From Roridomyces roridus (lineage: Eukaryota; Basidiomycota; Agaricomycetes; Agaricales; Mycenaceae), in NCBI GenBank assembly GCA_029378245.1, contig JARKIF010000168.1, positions 1 through 64,000 on the forward strand: 64,000 nucleotides of DNA. Reading direction: 5' to 3'. The notes beneath the pieces are model-generated. The model did not search any database. It was not told where the DNA came from and saw only the letters and a program-made list of their open reading frames with translations. This document shows positions 38,514 through 50,393 of this stretch, piece by piece; position 1 is the first letter of the stretch; every line of letters begins with the position of its first letter. Made by a program: the position numbers and the translations under genes.

Positions 38514-39953
38514 ATGTCTCCCGTTCTCAGCACTACCTCTAATACCACCACTGAACGCTGGATTATCCCTGCTGTTGCCAGCACCAAGCCTGCCTCTACC
38601 TCCCGTTACCACAATCCGGGCCTCGACCCGCGAAACTACCTCGATGGTCCTCTCTCAAACAATCCAGCTACACGTCTTCGCCAGATGCTTGCGCGTCCCG
38701 GAATCATTGTCAGTATTGTGTATATTAAATGCACACGAGCACTAATTGGTCTTCAGGTTGCTCCGGGAATATGTGACGGTATCAGCGCTCGCTGCGCCAT
38801 CGAGGCGGGCTTTGACTGTCTGTACCAAAGGTCTGTTTTCATTTCGTCCATCCTTTCACTCGATGTTGACGACCGGACAGTGGTGCGGCTACTACTGCAT
38901 CGGCAAGTCTCTCTCTCTTGATGACAACCCTCGTTTTGACCATCCCTACCGCAGAGGCTTGGACAGCCAGACCTGGCGATTGCGACACTCAACGATTTTG
39001 TTGGCGTGCGTATTCACATTTTTTCCTTTCTCCCTCAATTAACTTTTCTTCCAGGCGGCTGAGATGGTCTGTGGTCTTGAACCAACGATGCCGGTCATTG
39101 CAGACGCGGACACAGGGTATGGACTTGTCAAGTTTGCGTCCTTCATCTATTCAACTTCATCAGCTTCGGCGGTCCCACCATGATTGCTCGCACTGTCACG
39201 AAATACGCCCGAGCAGGCGTCGCCGGCCTTCACATTGAAGACCAAGTCCAAACTAAACGTTGCGGTCACCTTCTCGGCAAGCAGGTCGTGTCGCGCGAAG
39301 AGTTTGTCACACGTATACGGGCGGCGGTGCTTGCCCGGGACTCGATGCCCGGCGGGTCTGACTTTGTTATCATCGGGCGCACGGACTCGGCGCAGGTCCT
39401 GGGGATGGATGAAGCGATCCTGAGGTTGAAGCTTGCTGCGGATGCGGGTGCGGATGTTTGCTTCATTGAGGGGGTGAAGACGAAGCAGCTGTTGGAGCAG
39501 ACGGTCGCTGCGTTGGCGCCCAAGCCGGTGAGCCCCTTTCTTCTTCGTTGCTTCCATCTTTACTGAGAGTTACCTTGAGGTGTTGGTCAACGTGATATCC
39601 GGAGGATTGACGCCATCCTTCACTTCGAAAGACGCCGAAGCTATGGGCGCCAAGATAATCAGTGAGTGCTCGATTTGTAGCTATGCCTATGTCTTCTCAA
39701 ATCCCGCAGTATTTTCGCTAGCTTCCTGCGTTCCTATGGTACACGCTGTCCGCGCAGCAATGAAGGCGCTCAAAGAGACCGGCACGGACTTTATTGCGGC
39801 TCAGGGTATGGGACCGAGGGATTTCTTTGAGGTCATGGGTGGGTCTCTCTGGTATGCGCTGGATTTGAATGCAGTTCTGACTTTTGGATAGGACTGCGCG
39901 ACGCGATCAGTCTCGATTCCAAGGCGGGAGGGAGTGCGTTTGTTTCGATTTAG
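38514..39953 (+). CDS. PEP mutase / isocitrate lyase superfamily enzyme
   Basis: Nine exons (38514-38708, 38757-38830, 38881-38902, 38955-39005, 39055-39116, 39164-39527, 39580-39661, 39710-39838, 39892-39953) give 346 residues. The barrel landmarks are clear: LARPGIIVAPGICDG, the glycine/serine loop SGAATTASRLGQPDL, VIADADTGFGGP (metal-binding Asp pair), GLHIEDQVQTKRCGH with the catalytic KRCGH loop, DFVIIGRTDS and ADVCFIEG. Members cleave or form C-C or C-P bonds in 2-oxo acids such as oxaloacetate, 2-methylisocitrate or phosphonopyruvate. Which substrate is used cannot be told from sequence, but the length suggests an oxaloacetate hydrolase or carboxyphosphonoenolpyruvate mutase-like enzyme. 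Intron 3 (38903-38954) uses a GC donor. Confidence 0.85.
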
Positions 39954-40622
39954 GTGTAATATTTGCGGTATCTTTTGGGCTGTATTGTACTTGGTGGTTC
40001 TTGAATAATATCTGGCTCCTGCATCATTCAAGCGCGGTTAGCGACGAGCGTTGCCCAAAGGAGATAATCTACCTGGCTCAAAACAGTTGCACACACAAAC
40101 ACTCTTTTTCTTCAACCTCCATGATCTCTCTCAAGCGCTTCCACCACCACCGACGATGACACCAACTGTGAGTCTCTCGACAATCTACTTCAGGATGAAT
40201 AAAATAGAAGTCAAGCCCTGAATCAACGATATTGACGAGATCTATTCTACTGACCCACCTCTTCTTGTCCTTCTCCCCGTCTTTTACCGTATGGACGTGG
40301 CTGACTGTTCTCTCAGATACCGTTGGTCTCGTTGGAGTTTCAGTTGGCCGGGCTTTTGAGAGAGGAAAGGGTGCTTGTGTTGGTGGTGCGTTTTTTTTTC
40401 GAGTATGGCTTGTCTTTTGTACTTCCCCAAATACACGTCGGACCTTTTTTCATCGACGTCGACACCAGTCGCGGCACCACCTTCCTTTCCATCTGCCATT
40501 GCAAACTGCTCGCCCTTGAAGTGTCGACGTGCCTGATGGAGCCATACATACCCTCCATGTAAATTTGGCCGTCTTCCAGCGCATAAAGCCAGGTGGCATG
40601 AGCGTAACAGCTCGCATTCGCT
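39954..40622. other. Intergenic region, no gene recognised
   Basis: Short frames on both strands only. The right part should contain the ABC transporter promoter; no element is confidently identified. Confidence 0.5.
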
Positions 40623-43600
40623 ATGGATCCTGGCTCATTGACTGTTCCCCTTTATGCCGCTTTGCTCTCTGTTCTCATTATAGCGTTGCGTTCTGCCAAG
40701 TTGGTCCGAGCAAAAGCAGCTTCAGAACCGTCGTGGAAGAACCTGTCAAAGCATGGTGGTGCTACTGCTCTGCTTTGCAGCAGCCTCCGACTCCTGGCGT
40801 GTTCGACTCTTTTGGGACTATCAATGGCGTCGTCGTTCAGTAACGACGCGTATTGGAAACTTCAACTAGCACTCGGTGTTTTCTACGTGCGTGGCTCGGC
40901 GACTCGGACATTCTTAATCTAACAGGCACCAGTTATACGCATCTCTGCTCGCTGCAGCCGCCATCTTCAGTTCGGTGGCCAAGGCGCACCTGGACTTGAT
41001 ACTGTCCGTGGCCTTTATCGTTTACTTTTACCGCGATATCCTGCCGCTCGGAACATACACGTGGCCCATTCAAGACGCAGCCGAGGGTCGTATTCTGCTC
41101 CCAAAAATCATCGTCCTCACTGTCGCCGCGGTGATGATACCGCTGGTCACGCCACGGACGTATATCCCTGTCAACCCTTTGGTGTGTGATTCCTCTTTTG
41201 CCTTTGCAGCATACTAAGTCGGGAACTCAGCAACCAATGCCCATCCCGAACCCTGAGCAGACCGCATCACCTCTCTCGCTACTATCTCTCAGCTTCCTTG
41301 ATCCTCTCGTATTGCTCGCCTACAAACTACCTCATTTGCCATTTGACCTTCTTCCTCCACTCGCCGACACGGATTATTCGCAGAATCTCAAGGCACGAGG
41401 GTTTCCGGTATGTCGGTATCTGCTTTGCACGCGCCCAATCTGACGAGAACAGAACTTGGACCCATTCTCAGGCGCGGGGAAGCGGCACATAGTTCTCGGC
41501 ATACTGAAAACATTCCGGTACTTTTCGATGCTACCTTCTGGCACCGTCAACTCATAGAAGATAGAACTGACTTTGTTATTCTCATCTTCACCGCGTTGAT
41601 CTACCTGGCCTGCACGTTTGCTGCGCCGATTGGCATCAACCGTGTACTTGCGTGAGTATTTGTTTTGTCAGAGTCTATCTGAGCTTATGCCTCATTACAT
41701 AGATATCTCGAAGATGGGCCAAGTACCTCCGAATTCCGGCCCTTTGTCTGGATCATTTGGCTCGCCCTGGGTCCTTTGGCGTCTTCGATCGCCATGCAAG
41801 CTTATTTTCGCATGACCCGACATATTAGGGTGCAGGTGGAGAGCCTCCTCACGGAACTCATCTTTGAGCATGCACTGCGCGTGCGCGTCAAAGCGCAAAA
41901 TTCGGATGCGGACAACGGACCATCCGAAGCGAGTGTCGGCGCGGATGCCAGTCGAGAAACTTTGAATCCCACCTCGAATTCCAAAAAAGCCGTTAACAGT
42001 TCTATCGACCTTGGCCGCATCAACAACCTTATTAGCACGGATCTGCGCAATTCAACGGAATTGGTGCAGTTCCCCCTGCTTTTATTCCACATGCCGGCTA
42101 GTATTGTTATATCCCTCGTCTTCTTGTATCAAATATTGGGCTGGAGGCACGTTACCGGCTTGCTCTCTTGCGATGATAAATACTCATTCTTGCAGTTCCT
42201 TTGTGGGAATGGCTGCGATGGCGGTCCTCCTACCCTTCTTTATCATGGTGTCGGGCTTCTTGCAGGCCATCCAGAAAGGCCGTATCAAAGCTGCCGACGC
42301 GCGTATTGGGACAATTACTGAAAGCGAGTTGCCTCCGTACTTTTTTTTGTGCCTCTACTTATAGTGTTCATTCAGTGATGAATGTCCTCCGTATGATCAA
42401 GCTGTTCGGATGGGAGGACAAAATGCTTGAACGCGTCAACGTAAAGCGGGAGGCGGAGCTTGGATGGATTTGGCAACGCGAATTTTTCGAAGTGGTTGCC
42501 AATAATATCAAGTAAGCCTTCTGGGTTTTGTTCGCTGCATGTCGATTGACGGTCAACAGTGGTCTCATTCCCAGTGAATCCACTTTCCACAACGGTTGCA
42601 CCACTCTGAATCCTTGCTCAAGTTGTGACCATGGTCTTGACTTATTCCACCTTTGTCAGTGTCATCCTAGCGGACATTCTAAGAAACTAAACCCTTCCTT
42701 CAGATCGTTGTGATGAAACAAGAATTACGGCCCTCCATCGTCTTTAGCTCGCTACCTGTGCTGGAAATAATCCGCACCCAATTGTTCAATGCGAACTACC
42801 AACTAATCGAGTTCATTGATGCCAAGGTCTCGATCGATCGGATCAACGACTTTTTGCACAACGTGAGCTGGTTTTCGTTCGCCGTGGGGATCTTACCTGG
42901 GTGTGCTTTAGACAGAGGTTTTGGACAGTTTTATAGAGACGGGGGCGATTACCGAAGCAACGCCCGAGTTGATTGGGTTCCGCGACGCTTCTTTCACTTG
43001 GTCCAACGAAAGCGATAGGTCCGCCACGCCGTCAAGGCGAAACTTTGTTCTTCATGTCGAAGGCGAGCTGCTGTTCAAACCCAAGTGCATCAATCTTGTT
43101 GTACGTTGCCATTTACATTTCCTGTCCTGTCTTTGACTTTGACTGCTAGTTGGGTCCGACCGGCGCTGGTGAGCAACTGCCAATGCATGTTAACGGCGAT
43201 TGACTCGTTCAGGGAAAACTTCGTGAGTCGACACTTTAGCAGGAATATCAAATGATTGATCCTTTTGTCAGGCTGCTCATGGCCTTGCTCGGTGAGTTCG
43301 AGTGGAGGTCAGCGCCCGGCAATGCTTGATACGTCTTGCAGGCGAAATGCATTTCGTCCCCTTGACGCCAAGCTCATGGTTTCACCTCCCCCGTGCCGGC
43401 GGGGTGGCCTATGCCGCGCAGGAATCATGGGTGTTGAACGAGACGATCCGCGACAATATATTGTTCGGCGCCGAGTACGATGATGAACGGTTGGTCGCAT
43501 CGGTGCTCGTCTGTAATGGCGCTAACAACGGACAGGTACAAGAAGGTTATCCACCAGTGCGCCCTTGAGCGTGATTTAGAGCTGTTTGATGCCGGTGGTC

Positions 43601-46570
43601 TGTCATTCTTCCCAATCTGCCCCAAATGGAGGCTTATTGTGAACCTAGACGCCTCGGAAGTCGGTGAGAGGGGGTTCGTGTCTCTACTTGTTTCAGTCTG
43701 TTTGGCTGATCGCTGATTTTCTTTTAGCCTGACACTGAGCATGGGGCAAAAGGCCAGAATTACGCTCGCTCGTGCCATTTATTCCACCGCGGAGCTTCTC
43801 CTTCTCGACGATGTCCTTGCCGCCTTAGGTTTGTCGAATTGATTGATCCCATCAGGCATATACTGATCCGTTTTCAAGAGTATGTCTCGGCGTGATCATC
43901 GGACTCCATATTAATCTCACATCAGTGTTCATACCTCGAAATGGATCGTTGAAAAGTGCTTTAGAGGTGATTTAGTTCGGGGTAGAACGATAATCCTAGT
44001 TGTCAGTGATGTTTTTTTTTTGGCTTGACACCACTTCTGATCTGTCCTTAGACCCATAACGTAGCACTGGCGGCGACTGTCGCGGATTTCACGGTCTCCA
44101 TTGGCGTGAATGGCCGGATTCTGAGTCAAGGATCAGTGTCAGAGGCCCTGCAGAAGGATATCACTCTCGCGGAAGAAGCAAATGCAGAGGTGGAACAAGT
44201 CGCCGGCCCAGAGTCTATCAAAAAAGAGACTGTAGACGGGAAATTAATTCTTGCCGAAGAAGTCAAAATAGGCAACCTCCGGTGGTCAGCGGGTAACTCT
44301 TTTCCCAAGTTATAGTCGTACATTGATTTTTTTCCAGTCCGTCTTTACCTCCGTGGGCTGCGTGGATGGCTGTATCCCGGCCTTCTTCTTTTCCCCACAC
44401 TATTCCAATTGGCACAGGTCCTCGAAACGTGGTATCTTGGGTATTTTGCCTCGTTGTACGAAACTGGTCCCAGCAACTCCGTTTCGGTTGCCTAGTGCGT
44501 AATCACCAGTGTTCAACTCGGGTGCTGATTTTTCCCAGTCACATGGGAATATATGGATTGATTCTTTCATTCGACATTATCACCCACTGGATCTCAGATA
44601 TGCTTTTTGCCTGGGCCTTGATGTGCGCTTCCCGGAGCATCCATCTCGAGTTGATCAAGTCCATCCTGGGCACGACTTTCCGTTGGCTCGATACAACTCC
44701 CTCGTCCAGAGTCATTGCTAGGTTTACGGGGGACTTCGCGTCCGGTGAGTGGTTATGCAGGAATTCAGACGGCTCACTCAGCTCTCCACAGTCGACGCAT
44801 TCATTCCCTTCCTTTTCGGCGGGTTGATCTACAACAGCATCGCCATTATCCTGTCTTTGGGAGCCGTGGTGCTCTTGACCCCTGTCCTTTTGATCCCTGG
44901 GTTATGCGCTGCCATCGTCGGCGGCGCCATCGGGCAACTCTTCGCCAAAGCTCAACTTTCAGTCAAGCGCGAAAGCAGTACTGCCAGAGCTCCTGTCCTA
45001 GGACATTTTAGCGCAGCCATTTCCGGCCTACCATCCATCAGAGCTTATGGATCACAGGCCGCGTTTGTTCAAGAATCTCTCCGTCGGATTAATAAATATA
45101 CTAGAACCGCCAGAACACTTGGAGACTTGGAGCGTTGGGTTGGCGTGAGGCTTGCAGTCGTTGGCAATCTTCTCGCTGCCGTCATAGCGATTTACCTTGT
45201 GTATTTTCGAAAGGCAAGTCTTTTGCTTGCCGATGTGGTATACCTTTAATTTAGTGTCTAGGACCGCGCGAATAGTGTGGGCTTTAGTCTTGCGATGTCG
45301 GGTAATCAAGTCGATCCATACATTTCCTTTCGCTCACCCGTCATTTTAGCTGCGTTCAGCGTGCGGATTCTACAGTGGGCAAGTATATGGCTTGTTGCAT
45401 TTACTGCCCAAACTGACTCTCGGCCAGGTGCGCATGTTCAACGATGCTCAAATCCAAGGCAACTGCTTGGAACGTATTCAGCAATATATCGACATTGAAC
45501 AAGAACCCAAACCTACCGAAGCGGGAAAACCGCCTGCACATTGGCCTAGCAGCGGCGAACTGATCGTCGAGAAAATGTCCGCACGATATTCACCCGATGG
45601 GCCGAAAGTATTGCACGACATTTCGTTCCGCGTCAATTCTGGTGAACGTGTTGGGATTGGTGAGCCAAGTCGGCGCCTGGCCGGTACCTTTGTATGTCTG
45701 ATCTGAGTACTCAGTGGGCCGAACTGGATCTGGGAAATCCAGTCTCACTCTCGCGCTGCTACGGTCCATATACACGGAAGGGATCGTTTACTATGACGGT
45801 ATTCCGACGTCTTCCGTGAATCTGGACGCTTTGCGCTCCAATATCACCATCATCCCTCAGATAGTGAGCTCATTCCCTTTTGTATTCTGTATCTAAAACC
45901 GCCGTTTAGCCCGAATTGCTCTCGGGATCTCTTCGACACAACTTGGACCCTTTTGATCAATACGATGACCTAACGCTCAACAACGCCCTGCGTGCAGCTT
46001 GGCTCTTCTCCCTTCAAGATGAGATGGAGGAAGGCCGCCTCGTGCTGGATACTATCATTTCGAGTGGCGGCTCGAACCTCTCTGTCGGCCAGAGGCAGAT
46101 TCTGGCGTTGGCCCGTGCAATCGTTCGTGACAGCAAAATCCTGATTTTAGGCGAGTTCATAGCCACCCCCTCTGAACGAGCCCTGATCAGATTGCAGACG
46201 AGGCCACTTCGGCGATAGACTACCAAACGGACAACGTCATCCAAGCGTCGTTGCGTAACGAGCTCAAGCCGGATGTCACCGTCCTGACTGTCGCACACCG
46301 GTTGCAAACCATCTTGGATTCTGATAAAATTGTGTGGGGCAACTATACTTGCGAACCCTGGTGCTGATTCCCTTTTAGATGGTCCTCGATGAAGGTCGTA
46401 TCGTGAGTGGTGTTTTCCTCATCTTACACTGATTTTTTATTTCTCTACAGGTCGAGTTTGATTCGCCCAATGTGCTGCTTCAAAATCCGAAGGGCAAGTT
46501 GCGCGCGTTGGTCGACGAGTCCAAGGATAGGGATCGTCTGTATGCAATGGCGCAGCAAGGAGGGCGTTAA
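40623..46570 (+). CDS. ABCC (MRP-type) full ABC transporter
   Basis: A many-exon gene from MDPGSLTVPLYAALL to YAMAQQGGR. It has an N-terminal membrane extension, membrane domain 1 (for example GMAAMAVLLPFFIMVSGFL), NBD1, membrane domain 2 and NBD2. NBD1 shows Walker A LGPTGAGKTSLLM, a degenerate-Glu Walker B LLLLDDVLAALD as usual for ABCC, and a signature LSMGQKARITLARA with Met replacing the usual Gly. NBD2 shows VGRTGSGKSSLTLALL, NLSVGQRQILALARA and DEATSAIDYQTDN, then VAHRLQTILDSDKI. The family exports glutathione conjugates, organic anions or drugs from the cytosol to vacuole or outside. NBD1 is split into tiny exons (19, 10 and 20 nt around Walker A, and a putative 1-nt exon at 43879). 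At least two introns have GC donors (42147, 46151). Confidence 0.88.
43879..43879 (+). other. Putative single-nucleotide exon in ABCC NBD1
   Basis: Upstream exon ends ...GCC TTA G at 43828, and the downstream exon resumes T GTT CAT ACC at 43926. Joining them directly breaks the frame. Splicing 43829-43878 (50 nt, gtttgt...ttttcaag) and 43880-43925 (46 nt, gtatgt...atcag) leaves the single A at 43879. This makes GAT and restores the D-loop Asp in AALDVHTSKW. Both implied introns have the normal length and good consensus ends. Confidence 0.6.
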
Positions 46571-49817: not shown

Positions 49818-50393
49818 AGTCTGCACCAACACCACCACCACCATTTCTTCCACCTCTCTTCTTTCTCTACTCGATGCGTCCGCCACCCATGGAGACGAAG
49901 TATAGTCCTTGGTCCGGAGACCGGACGACGGCTTGAGCTGCTTCTCTTGCCCGAGGTCCCACCCTCTCCTCGATTCATCGGCGCCCCCGCTTCTACCCCC
50001 CATTAGCCGCGGCCTGCTTTCGAGTCTTCTTTCTTCATCGACAATTGCGACACGCACGGATCTCGAGGGCGGACGCGCCACTATCGGGAGGGTGTCTTTG
50101 GTTTCTTTCGGTTTCTTTGGGTTGGTGGTGTCGGTGTTTTATATCTTAGCTGGTTCGACAGTTGGCCCGCCTTTGCCCGCCTTTCGGCATACGTATATAC
50201 CCCCAGCTGTATTCTTGTATAATGACTACTCTTTCTGCGTCTCAGGGTGGGGTTGGTGGTCGACGTTGTGGTTCACTGCGACGGTTTCCTACTGTATTCT
50301 CCTTTGTACTTTGACCAATGAATTCAATTCTGGGGTCAAGACAAGGGATCAACCGATCACAAAGGCAACCACAACTTTCACGTCCTCACCGCC
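49818..50393. other. Intergenic region, no gene recognised
   Basis: A 162-codon plus-strand open frame (49909-50397) runs through but has no family features and overlaps the next gene's start. It may be 3' and 5' untranslated sequence of the flanking genes. Confidence 0.45.

What the first reader, a model, noticed from the sequence alone, without database searches (positions are those of the whole stretch)
43829..43925. Putative single-nucleotide exon restores the D-loop aspartate of an ABCC transporter
Seen: after Walker B, the exon ends with one unpaired G (43828) and the next clearly coding exon starts with T (43926), so one intron cannot restore the frame. The 97-nt gap splits exactly into a 50-nt intron (gtttgt...ttttcaag), a lone A (43879), and a 46-nt intron (gtatgt...atcag). 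The result, G+A+T, is Asp in AALDVHTSKW, the D-loop residue expected from ABC transporters. Both intron lengths match this genome's norm. Known: one-nucleotide exons have been reported in plants; I know of no fungal case.
Basis: partly seen in the sequence, partly recalled or inferred. Interest (0 to 1): 0.88.

Follow-up and report, generated by a model that had tools for sequence, protein, structure and literature searches.

The report
One-letter exon in mushroom transporter gene
A mushroom's membrane-pump gene appears to contain an exon only one DNA letter long, without which the protein's reading frame breaks; such exons are already known in plants and one other fungal gene, and here related genes suggest it formed when a new intron arose one letter away from an old one.

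Summary
The 97-nt gap at 43829-43925 in an ABCC-type transporter gene splits into a 50-nt intron, a lone A (43879) and a 46-nt intron, giving GAT = Asp of the NBD1 D-loop. The organism is inferred to be the mushroom Roridomyces roridus. All four copies found in its assembly (two near-identical pairs) share the structure. Between the pairs synonymous sites are saturated, yet AG|A|GT and all four splice sites remain, while the codon reads GAT or GAC. The 118 other introns modelled are 41-55 nt; the only frame-keeping one-intron alternative tested needs 91-94 nt and a poor donor. Seven of 20 other own-genome ABC loci have only the second intron; 0 of 18 informative ones have the first. So the exon was probably born by intron gain beside an older intron. 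Four of four deposited proteins of the clade, including M. galericulata and M. maculata, are abnormal here. No RNA evidence was available. One-nucleotide exons are already published, also in Fusarium: a new member of a known kind.

The parts
40623..46570 (+). Whole ABCC-type transporter gene: 33 exons, 32 introns, 1468 aa, stop TAA at 46568-46570
   Evidence: Spliced alignment to the own-species protein P0001 with its D-loop residue masked, its frame-shifted segment replaced and one retained intron removed; Pfam ABC_membrane and ABC_tran, two stretches each
43728..43828 (+). Upstream coding exon (signature LSMGQ to Walker B LLLLDDVLAAL), ends with one unpaired G
43829..43878 (+). Intron 1, 50 nt, phase 1, GTTTGT...ctgat...TTTTCAAG; inferred to be the gained intron
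   Evidence: Donor and acceptor score inside the range of 118 trained introns; present in 4 of 4 copies and in 0 of 18 other own-genome ABC loci with a located D; used exactly by the deposited model P0001 of the C1 copy
43879..43879 (+). One-nucleotide exon A: second base of the NBD1 D-loop Asp codon (G|A|T)
   Evidence: A in 4 of 4 copies
43880..43925 (+). Intron 2, 46 nt, phase 2, GTATGT...attaat...CATCAG; inferred to be the older intron
   Evidence: Same GA|Y position in 7 of 20 other own-genome ABC loci
43926..44001 (+). Downstream coding exon (T + VHTSKWIVEKCFRGDLVRGRTIILV)

Best explanation
43879 is a real and probably constitutive one-nucleotide exon of an ABCC-type ABC transporter gene. 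It supplies the middle base of the Asp codon of the NBD1 D-loop. Shown: the sequence anatomy, its conservation in four gene copies, and an early stop in every misprocessing outcome tested except use of one weak donor. Inferred: the two short introns are each recognised by intron definition and removed one after the other, because the acceptor of intron 1 and the donor of intron 2 are one base apart and could hardly be occupied together. Either order should work, because the three bases before donor 2 read AGA both before intron 1 is removed (...AG|A) and after (TTAG+A). Inferred origin: an old phase-2 intron (GA|Y) was joined by a new phase-1 intron inserted one base upstream (G|A), probably once, in an ancestor of Roridomyces, Mycena galericulata and M. 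maculata.
For: Exact parse in the window. Chosen by an ab initio search and by spliced alignment with 4 of 4 foreign guides. Four of four copies found in the assembly keep TTAG|GTTTG[TC]...AG|A|GT[AG]TGT...AG|[TC]GTTCA, while fourfold sites between the pairs are 39-40% identical, dS is about 1.8-1.9 and introns are 55-66% identical. GAT in one pair and GAC in the other: the third base, which lies in another exon, changes synonymously. Both introns lie in the 41-55 nt range of 118 others, and their donors fall at percentiles 10-36. Exon skipping or keeping either or both introns gives a premature stop in 4 of 4 copies. dN/dS 0.09-0.22, the between-pair values being rough because dS is saturated. 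Asp at this place in 188 of 195 deposited relatives, drawn from two capped best-120 lists, and aligned to Asp in 4 of 4 alignments shown to YCF1 and ABCC2 sequences of solved structures. Intron 2 alone in 7 of 20 other own-genome ABC loci, intron 1 in 0 of the 18 where the D was located. 4 of 4 deposited proteins of the clade are abnormal at this place against 3 of 191 others; the clade has support 98/96 with the residue masked.
Against: No RNA or cDNA was available. Most splice sites here are middling or weak: of eight acceptors and eight donors in the four copies, donors are at percentiles 10-36 and acceptors at 12-25 apart from 55 and 95 for the intron 1 acceptors of C461 and C469. With the D masked in the guide the aligner prefers the 1-nt exon by only 0.8-4.2 score units. 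Guided by unedited proteins it chose the 1-nt exon in 1 of 4 copies. For M. galericulata and M. maculata only proteins, no DNA, could be seen, and the M. galericulata protein does keep a D, after an extra G.
Confidence: 0.93

Rival explanations
1. A single 93-nt intron (43833-43925) with a donor four bases downstream gives ALGFVHT: the D-loop Asp is replaced by Gly-Phe and the protein gains one residue.
For: It is the only one-intron outcome tested that keeps the frame. Deposited M. galericulata (ALGDVHT) and M. maculata (ALGYVHT) proteins have this form.
Against: Its donor (GTCGAA) scores below all 118 trained donors in the window and C1 copies (-5.52 against a minimum of -2.46), is at percentile 3 in the other two, and is GC in the C469 copy; its length, 91-94 nt, lies outside 41-55 nt. 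It removes a residue that 188 of 195 relatives keep and leaves the conserved AG|A|GT unexplained.
Confidence: 0.04
2. Exon skipping or intron retention is the main product, so the gene is non-functional or is switched off through premature stops.
For: The deposited model of the C1 copy removes intron 1, reads through intron 2 and shifts frame. Skipped and retained products carry stops in 4 of 4 copies, as a regulated poison switch would.
Against: The four copies have otherwise open frames and dN/dS of 0.09-0.22, so functional protein is being selected for. Skipping may occur as a minor product; nothing here tests that.
Confidence: 0.02
3. Sequencing or assembly error: a base is missing and there is really one ordinary intron.
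For: None found.
Against: The structure recurs in four copies on four contigs, the two pairs differing at saturation.
Confidence: 0.01

Closest known systems
Fusarium CYP621A P450 one-nucleotide exon (Nelson and Syed 2026, PMC12940212; parts 1-2 of 3 read)
   Same: Fungal nuclear gene; the one-base exon is the middle base of a codon in a conserved motif; flanked by GT-AG introns; missed by nearly all deposited models
   Different: Ascomycete P450, base G (AG|G|GT), RNA reads shown; as one possible scenario its authors suggest base loss followed by rescue through a cryptic exon. Here a mushroom ABC transporter, base A, no RNA, and paralogs that point to intron gain beside an older intron
Plant APC11 single-nucleotide exon (Guo and Liu 2015, PMC4674806; passages read)
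   Same: Constitutive one-base exon, also an A; authors favour intron definition combined with recursive, stepwise removal
   Different: Plant gene, shown by protoplast reporter assays; the two rice paralogs are intronless
Plant VPS55 1-nt microexon (PMC8831610; passages read)
   Same: One-base exon conserved across species, absent from annotations
   Different: Plants; isoforms with and without the exon in some lineages
[quoted passage not shown] passages read)
   Same: Two introns inserted at neighbouring positions leave a one-base A exon; some related genomes carry only one of the two
   Different: Mitochondrial group II introns, rRNA gene, no spliceosome

Membership tests
Single-nucleotide spliceosomal exon | One base flanked by AG and GT and by two introns of acceptable length and sites | tested here: met
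   50 and 46 nt, donors and acceptors within the range of 118 introns
Single-nucleotide spliceosomal exon | Needed to keep the reading frame and a conserved residue | tested here: met
   skipping and retention give stops in 4 of 4 copies; Asp in 188 of 195 relatives
Single-nucleotide spliceosomal exon | Conserved in related genes | tested here: met
   4 of 4 own-genome copies found, GAT and GAC; other species only through protein anomalies
Single-nucleotide spliceosomal exon | Present in mature RNA | not testable with these tools
   No RNA data or cDNA in reach
ABCC (MRP/YCF1-type) ABC transporter | Two ABC_membrane and two ABC_tran domains | tested here: met
   two stretches of each
ABCC (MRP/YCF1-type) ABC transporter | Closest solved sequences are ABCC members, with Asp at the D-loop | tested here: met
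   the best 11 rows are YCF1, ABCC2 and MRP1; in the 4 alignments shown the query Asp meets Asp
ABCC (MRP/YCF1-type) ABC transporter | Transport activity | not tested
   No assay; substrate unknown
Recursive splice site (zero-nucleotide ratchet point) | AG directly followed by GT, leaving no exonic base | tested here: not met
   one base (A) remains between AG and GT; it may work like a ratchet point but is not one

The most novel reading that the evidence does not exclude
The one-nucleotide exon arose by a single spliceosomal intron gain exactly one base upstream of an older intron, in an ancestor within the Mycena group. It then survived a gene duplication and speciation (Roridomyces, M. galericulata, M. 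maculata), each copy being spliced stepwise at an AG|A|GT point that acts like a ratchet leaving one base behind. The four deposited gene models of the clade that were seen are abnormal at this place because of it.
Probability: 0.6. Interest if true: 0.62.

Novelty: new member of a known kind. Interest (0 to 1): 0.5.

Why it matters
It adds a mushroom gene to a short list of nuclear one-nucleotide exons. No basidiomycete one-nucleotide exon turned up in the full-text searches (open-licence PMC papers only; longer micro-exons in a basidiomycete, such as 8 nt in Phanerochaete chrysosporium, are on record). Unlike the scenario offered for the published fungal case (base loss plus rescue), it comes with relatives that carry only the neighbouring intron, so the direction of change can be read. 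It also shows an annotation failure that repeats: four of four deposited proteins of the clade are abnormal at a conserved residue of the nucleotide-binding domain. The four natural copies form a ready-made set for testing the order of intron removal around the smallest possible exon.

Tried and rejected
Plasmid DNA search with the region: no match. First Pfam call failed because a DNA slice held a stop codon; it was run later with the spliced protein. First DNA alignment of the four loci used the wrong slice of each locus; redone with the right slice. The ab initio model was right at this exon but merged or missed other exons, so it served only as a draft. Spliced alignment with unedited guides was misled at the D-loop by the errors in P0001 and P0002: it chose the 1-nt exon in 1 of 4 copies. 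It was replaced by guides with the D-loop masked. The idea of a sequencing error was dropped after four copies agreed. In the C461 and C469 copies a second one-base split exists two bases downstream (base T, would give Val by my reading); it was not favoured because it does not give Asp and is absent from the window pair. DNA of M. galericulata and M. maculata was not in any collection on hand: by their descriptions genome contigs is bacterial and archaeal and metagenome scans are capped at 0, and no relatives are held for this genome. Trees: the 47-row tree left out P0033 and P0042 and masked the residue only in the Roridomyces rows; the 27-row tree used 23 deposited rows of my choice plus the four copies and masked the residue in all ingroup rows. 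Literature searches on intron gain with microexons in Basidiomycota and on Mycena genomes gave no paper. No structure was predicted, as it would not bear on splicing.

Full report
WHERE THIS IS. The window is contig 77 of a 90.8 Mb, 501-contig assembly. Two deposited Roridomyces roridus proteins sit on contigs whose lengths equal contigs 1 and 469 of this assembly (4,570,463 and 2,797,855 bases), so the organism is inferred to be R. roridus, a mushroom of the Mycena group. The window is collinear with contig 1: one tested stretch on each side of the gene matches contig 1 at 100% and 98%, at the expected spacing. It is therefore taken as the other haplotype of the same locus. That C461 and C469 are likewise two haplotypes is presumed from their 98% protein identity, not tested.

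THE GENE. Spliced alignment gives a 33-exon gene, 40623-46570, 1468 aa, no internal stop, with two ABC_membrane and two ABC_tran stretches. The nearest solved sequences are YCF1, ABCC2 and MRP1. It is an ABCC-type transporter; substrate unknown.

THE OBSERVATION. The letters and coordinates of the finding are right. The upstream exon ends TTA G at 43828, the downstream exon begins T GTT CAT at 43926, and the 97 bases between hold GT...AG (50), A, GT...AG (46). An ab initio search on codon usage and generic splice weights, with exons of one base allowed, chose this parse, though it was wrong at several other exons. Spliced alignment of NBD1 pieces of four foreign proteins (P0005, P0006, P0010, P0045) chose it each time. 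When one-base exons were forbidden the best model fell by about 10 units and read ALGFVHT. The guides contain the Asp, so this test leans towards it. With the Asp masked the preference shrinks to 0.8-4.2 units but keeps its direction in 4 of 4 copies. With unedited guides the winner was each time a deposited R. roridus model abnormal at this place, and the 1-nt exon was chosen in 1 of 4 copies. In 20 other own-genome ABC loci the same aligner called no one-base exon.

CONSERVATION. Four places in the genome match the region's DNA (such counts are lower bounds): window and C1, and C461 and C469. All four read TTAG|GTTTG[T/C]...AG|A|GT[A/G]TGT...AG|[T/C]GTTCA. Intron pairs are 50/46, 50/44, 49/47 and 50/47 nt. 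Each intron keeps a branch-like tract (tgatcc in intron 1 of all four; ttaat or ctgac in intron 2; read by eye). Between the two pairs fourfold sites are 39-40% identical and dS is about 1.8-1.9, that is, saturated; introns are 55-66% identical. The Asp codon is GAT in one pair and GAC in the other. A structure with no function would not be expected to survive this.

ALTERNATIVES. From 118 other introns of the four models, lengths are 41-55 nt (median 48; up to 130 was allowed), 108 GT and 10 GC donors. Donors at the tested exon are at percentiles 10-36, acceptors at 12-25 except 55 and 95 for intron 1 of C461 and C469. The only one-intron outcome that keeps the frame among the six tested needs 91-94 nt and a donor that scores below every trained donor in two copies and at percentile 3 in the others. 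Skipping the base, keeping intron 1, keeping intron 2 or keeping both gives a premature stop in 4 of 4 copies. dN/dS is 0.22 (window against C1), 0.11 (C461 against C469) and 0.09-0.10 between pairs (the last rough, dS being saturated).

ORIGIN. Of the 28 own-genome matches to the NBD1 piece, 8 are exons of the four copies; I aligned the other 20, some of which are near-identical pairs and so fewer genes. Seven (L019-L023, L026, L030) have one phase-2 intron in the Asp codon, GA|Y, the position of intron 2. Four (L008, L009, L011, L013) have none there and one nine codons later. Among the 18 loci in which the Asp was located, none has a phase-1 intron in that codon; in L034 and L035 the Asp was not located. 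Intron 2 is thus taken as older and intron 1 as a gain. L030 has its own extra intron three codons upstream, leaving a 10-nt exon, so this stretch seems to have gained introns more than once.

OTHER SPECIES. Among 195 deposited relatives (the best 120 of 1954 hits, plus 75 new ones among the best 120 of 1866), 188 have a normal D-loop and 7 do not. Four of the seven are P0001 (ALEYVS..., frame-shifted), P0002 (ALGVHT, which no single GT-AG intron between the flanking codons gives, by my reading), P0003 from M. galericulata (ALGDVHT, the D kept after an extra G) and P0016 from M. maculata (ALGYVHT). The last two are what a shifted donor would give from a hidden structure such as TTAG|GTGAGT (inference). 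The other three (P0036, P0038, P0043) look like a skipped exon or a kept intron. In a 27-row tree with the residue masked, the four Roridomyces copies, P0003 and P0016 form one clade (bootstrap 98, SH-aLRT 96), so the trait needs one change on it; a 47-row quick tree agrees (SH-aLRT 96). Only protein, not DNA, was available for the two Mycena species, so their one-base exon is a prediction.

MECHANISM. Shown: anatomy, conservation, and consequences of misprocessing. Inferred: intron definition and stepwise removal. Acceptor 1 and donor 2 are one base apart, so simultaneous occupation is unlikely. The three bases before donor 2 are AGA both before and after removal of intron 1, so the first step need not weaken the second. 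[quoted passage not shown]

WHAT IS KNOWN. One-nucleotide exons are published for plant APC11, plant VPS55, Fusarium CYP621A with RNA reads and, for group II introns, fungal mitochondrial rnl. No basidiomycete case came up in the searches; those cover open-licence papers only.

VERDICT. A real one-nucleotide exon with high probability, a new member of a known kind. Its added value is the readable origin (intron gain beside an older intron), replication in four copies, and a repeated error in deposited models.

Noticed in passing
43150-43291: The Walker A (P-loop) of NBD1, LGPTGAGKTSLLMALLG, is spread over three micro-exons of 19, 10 and 20 nt separated by introns of 44 and 49 nt.
   Followed up: partly
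42324, 45214, 46151 (also 42147, 45379): The window copy uses five GC donors among 32 introns; at three of them the C1 haplotype has GT.
   Followed up: no
43598-43648: The deposited C1 protein P0001 keeps this 51-nt intron in frame (GGLSFFPICPKWRLIVNL), a second annotation error in the same domain.
   Followed up: partly
43728-43760: NBD1 signature reads LSMGQ in the window and C1 copies but LSGGQ in C461 and C469; the window pair also sits on a longer branch.
   Followed up: no
L030 (G000:C491:1076500-1076577): Another ABC paralog has a 10-nt exon ending at the same Asp codon, from a separate upstream intron.
   Followed up: partly
50000-50242: A dispersed repeat: pieces at 74-94% identity at several places on contigs 1 and 71.
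   Followed up: no
39180-39980: The gene upstream of the transporter matches five further places at 74-75% DNA identity on contigs 112 and 206; it looks like an isocitrate lyase/phosphonomutase-type enzyme (recalled motif, no family search).
   Followed up: no
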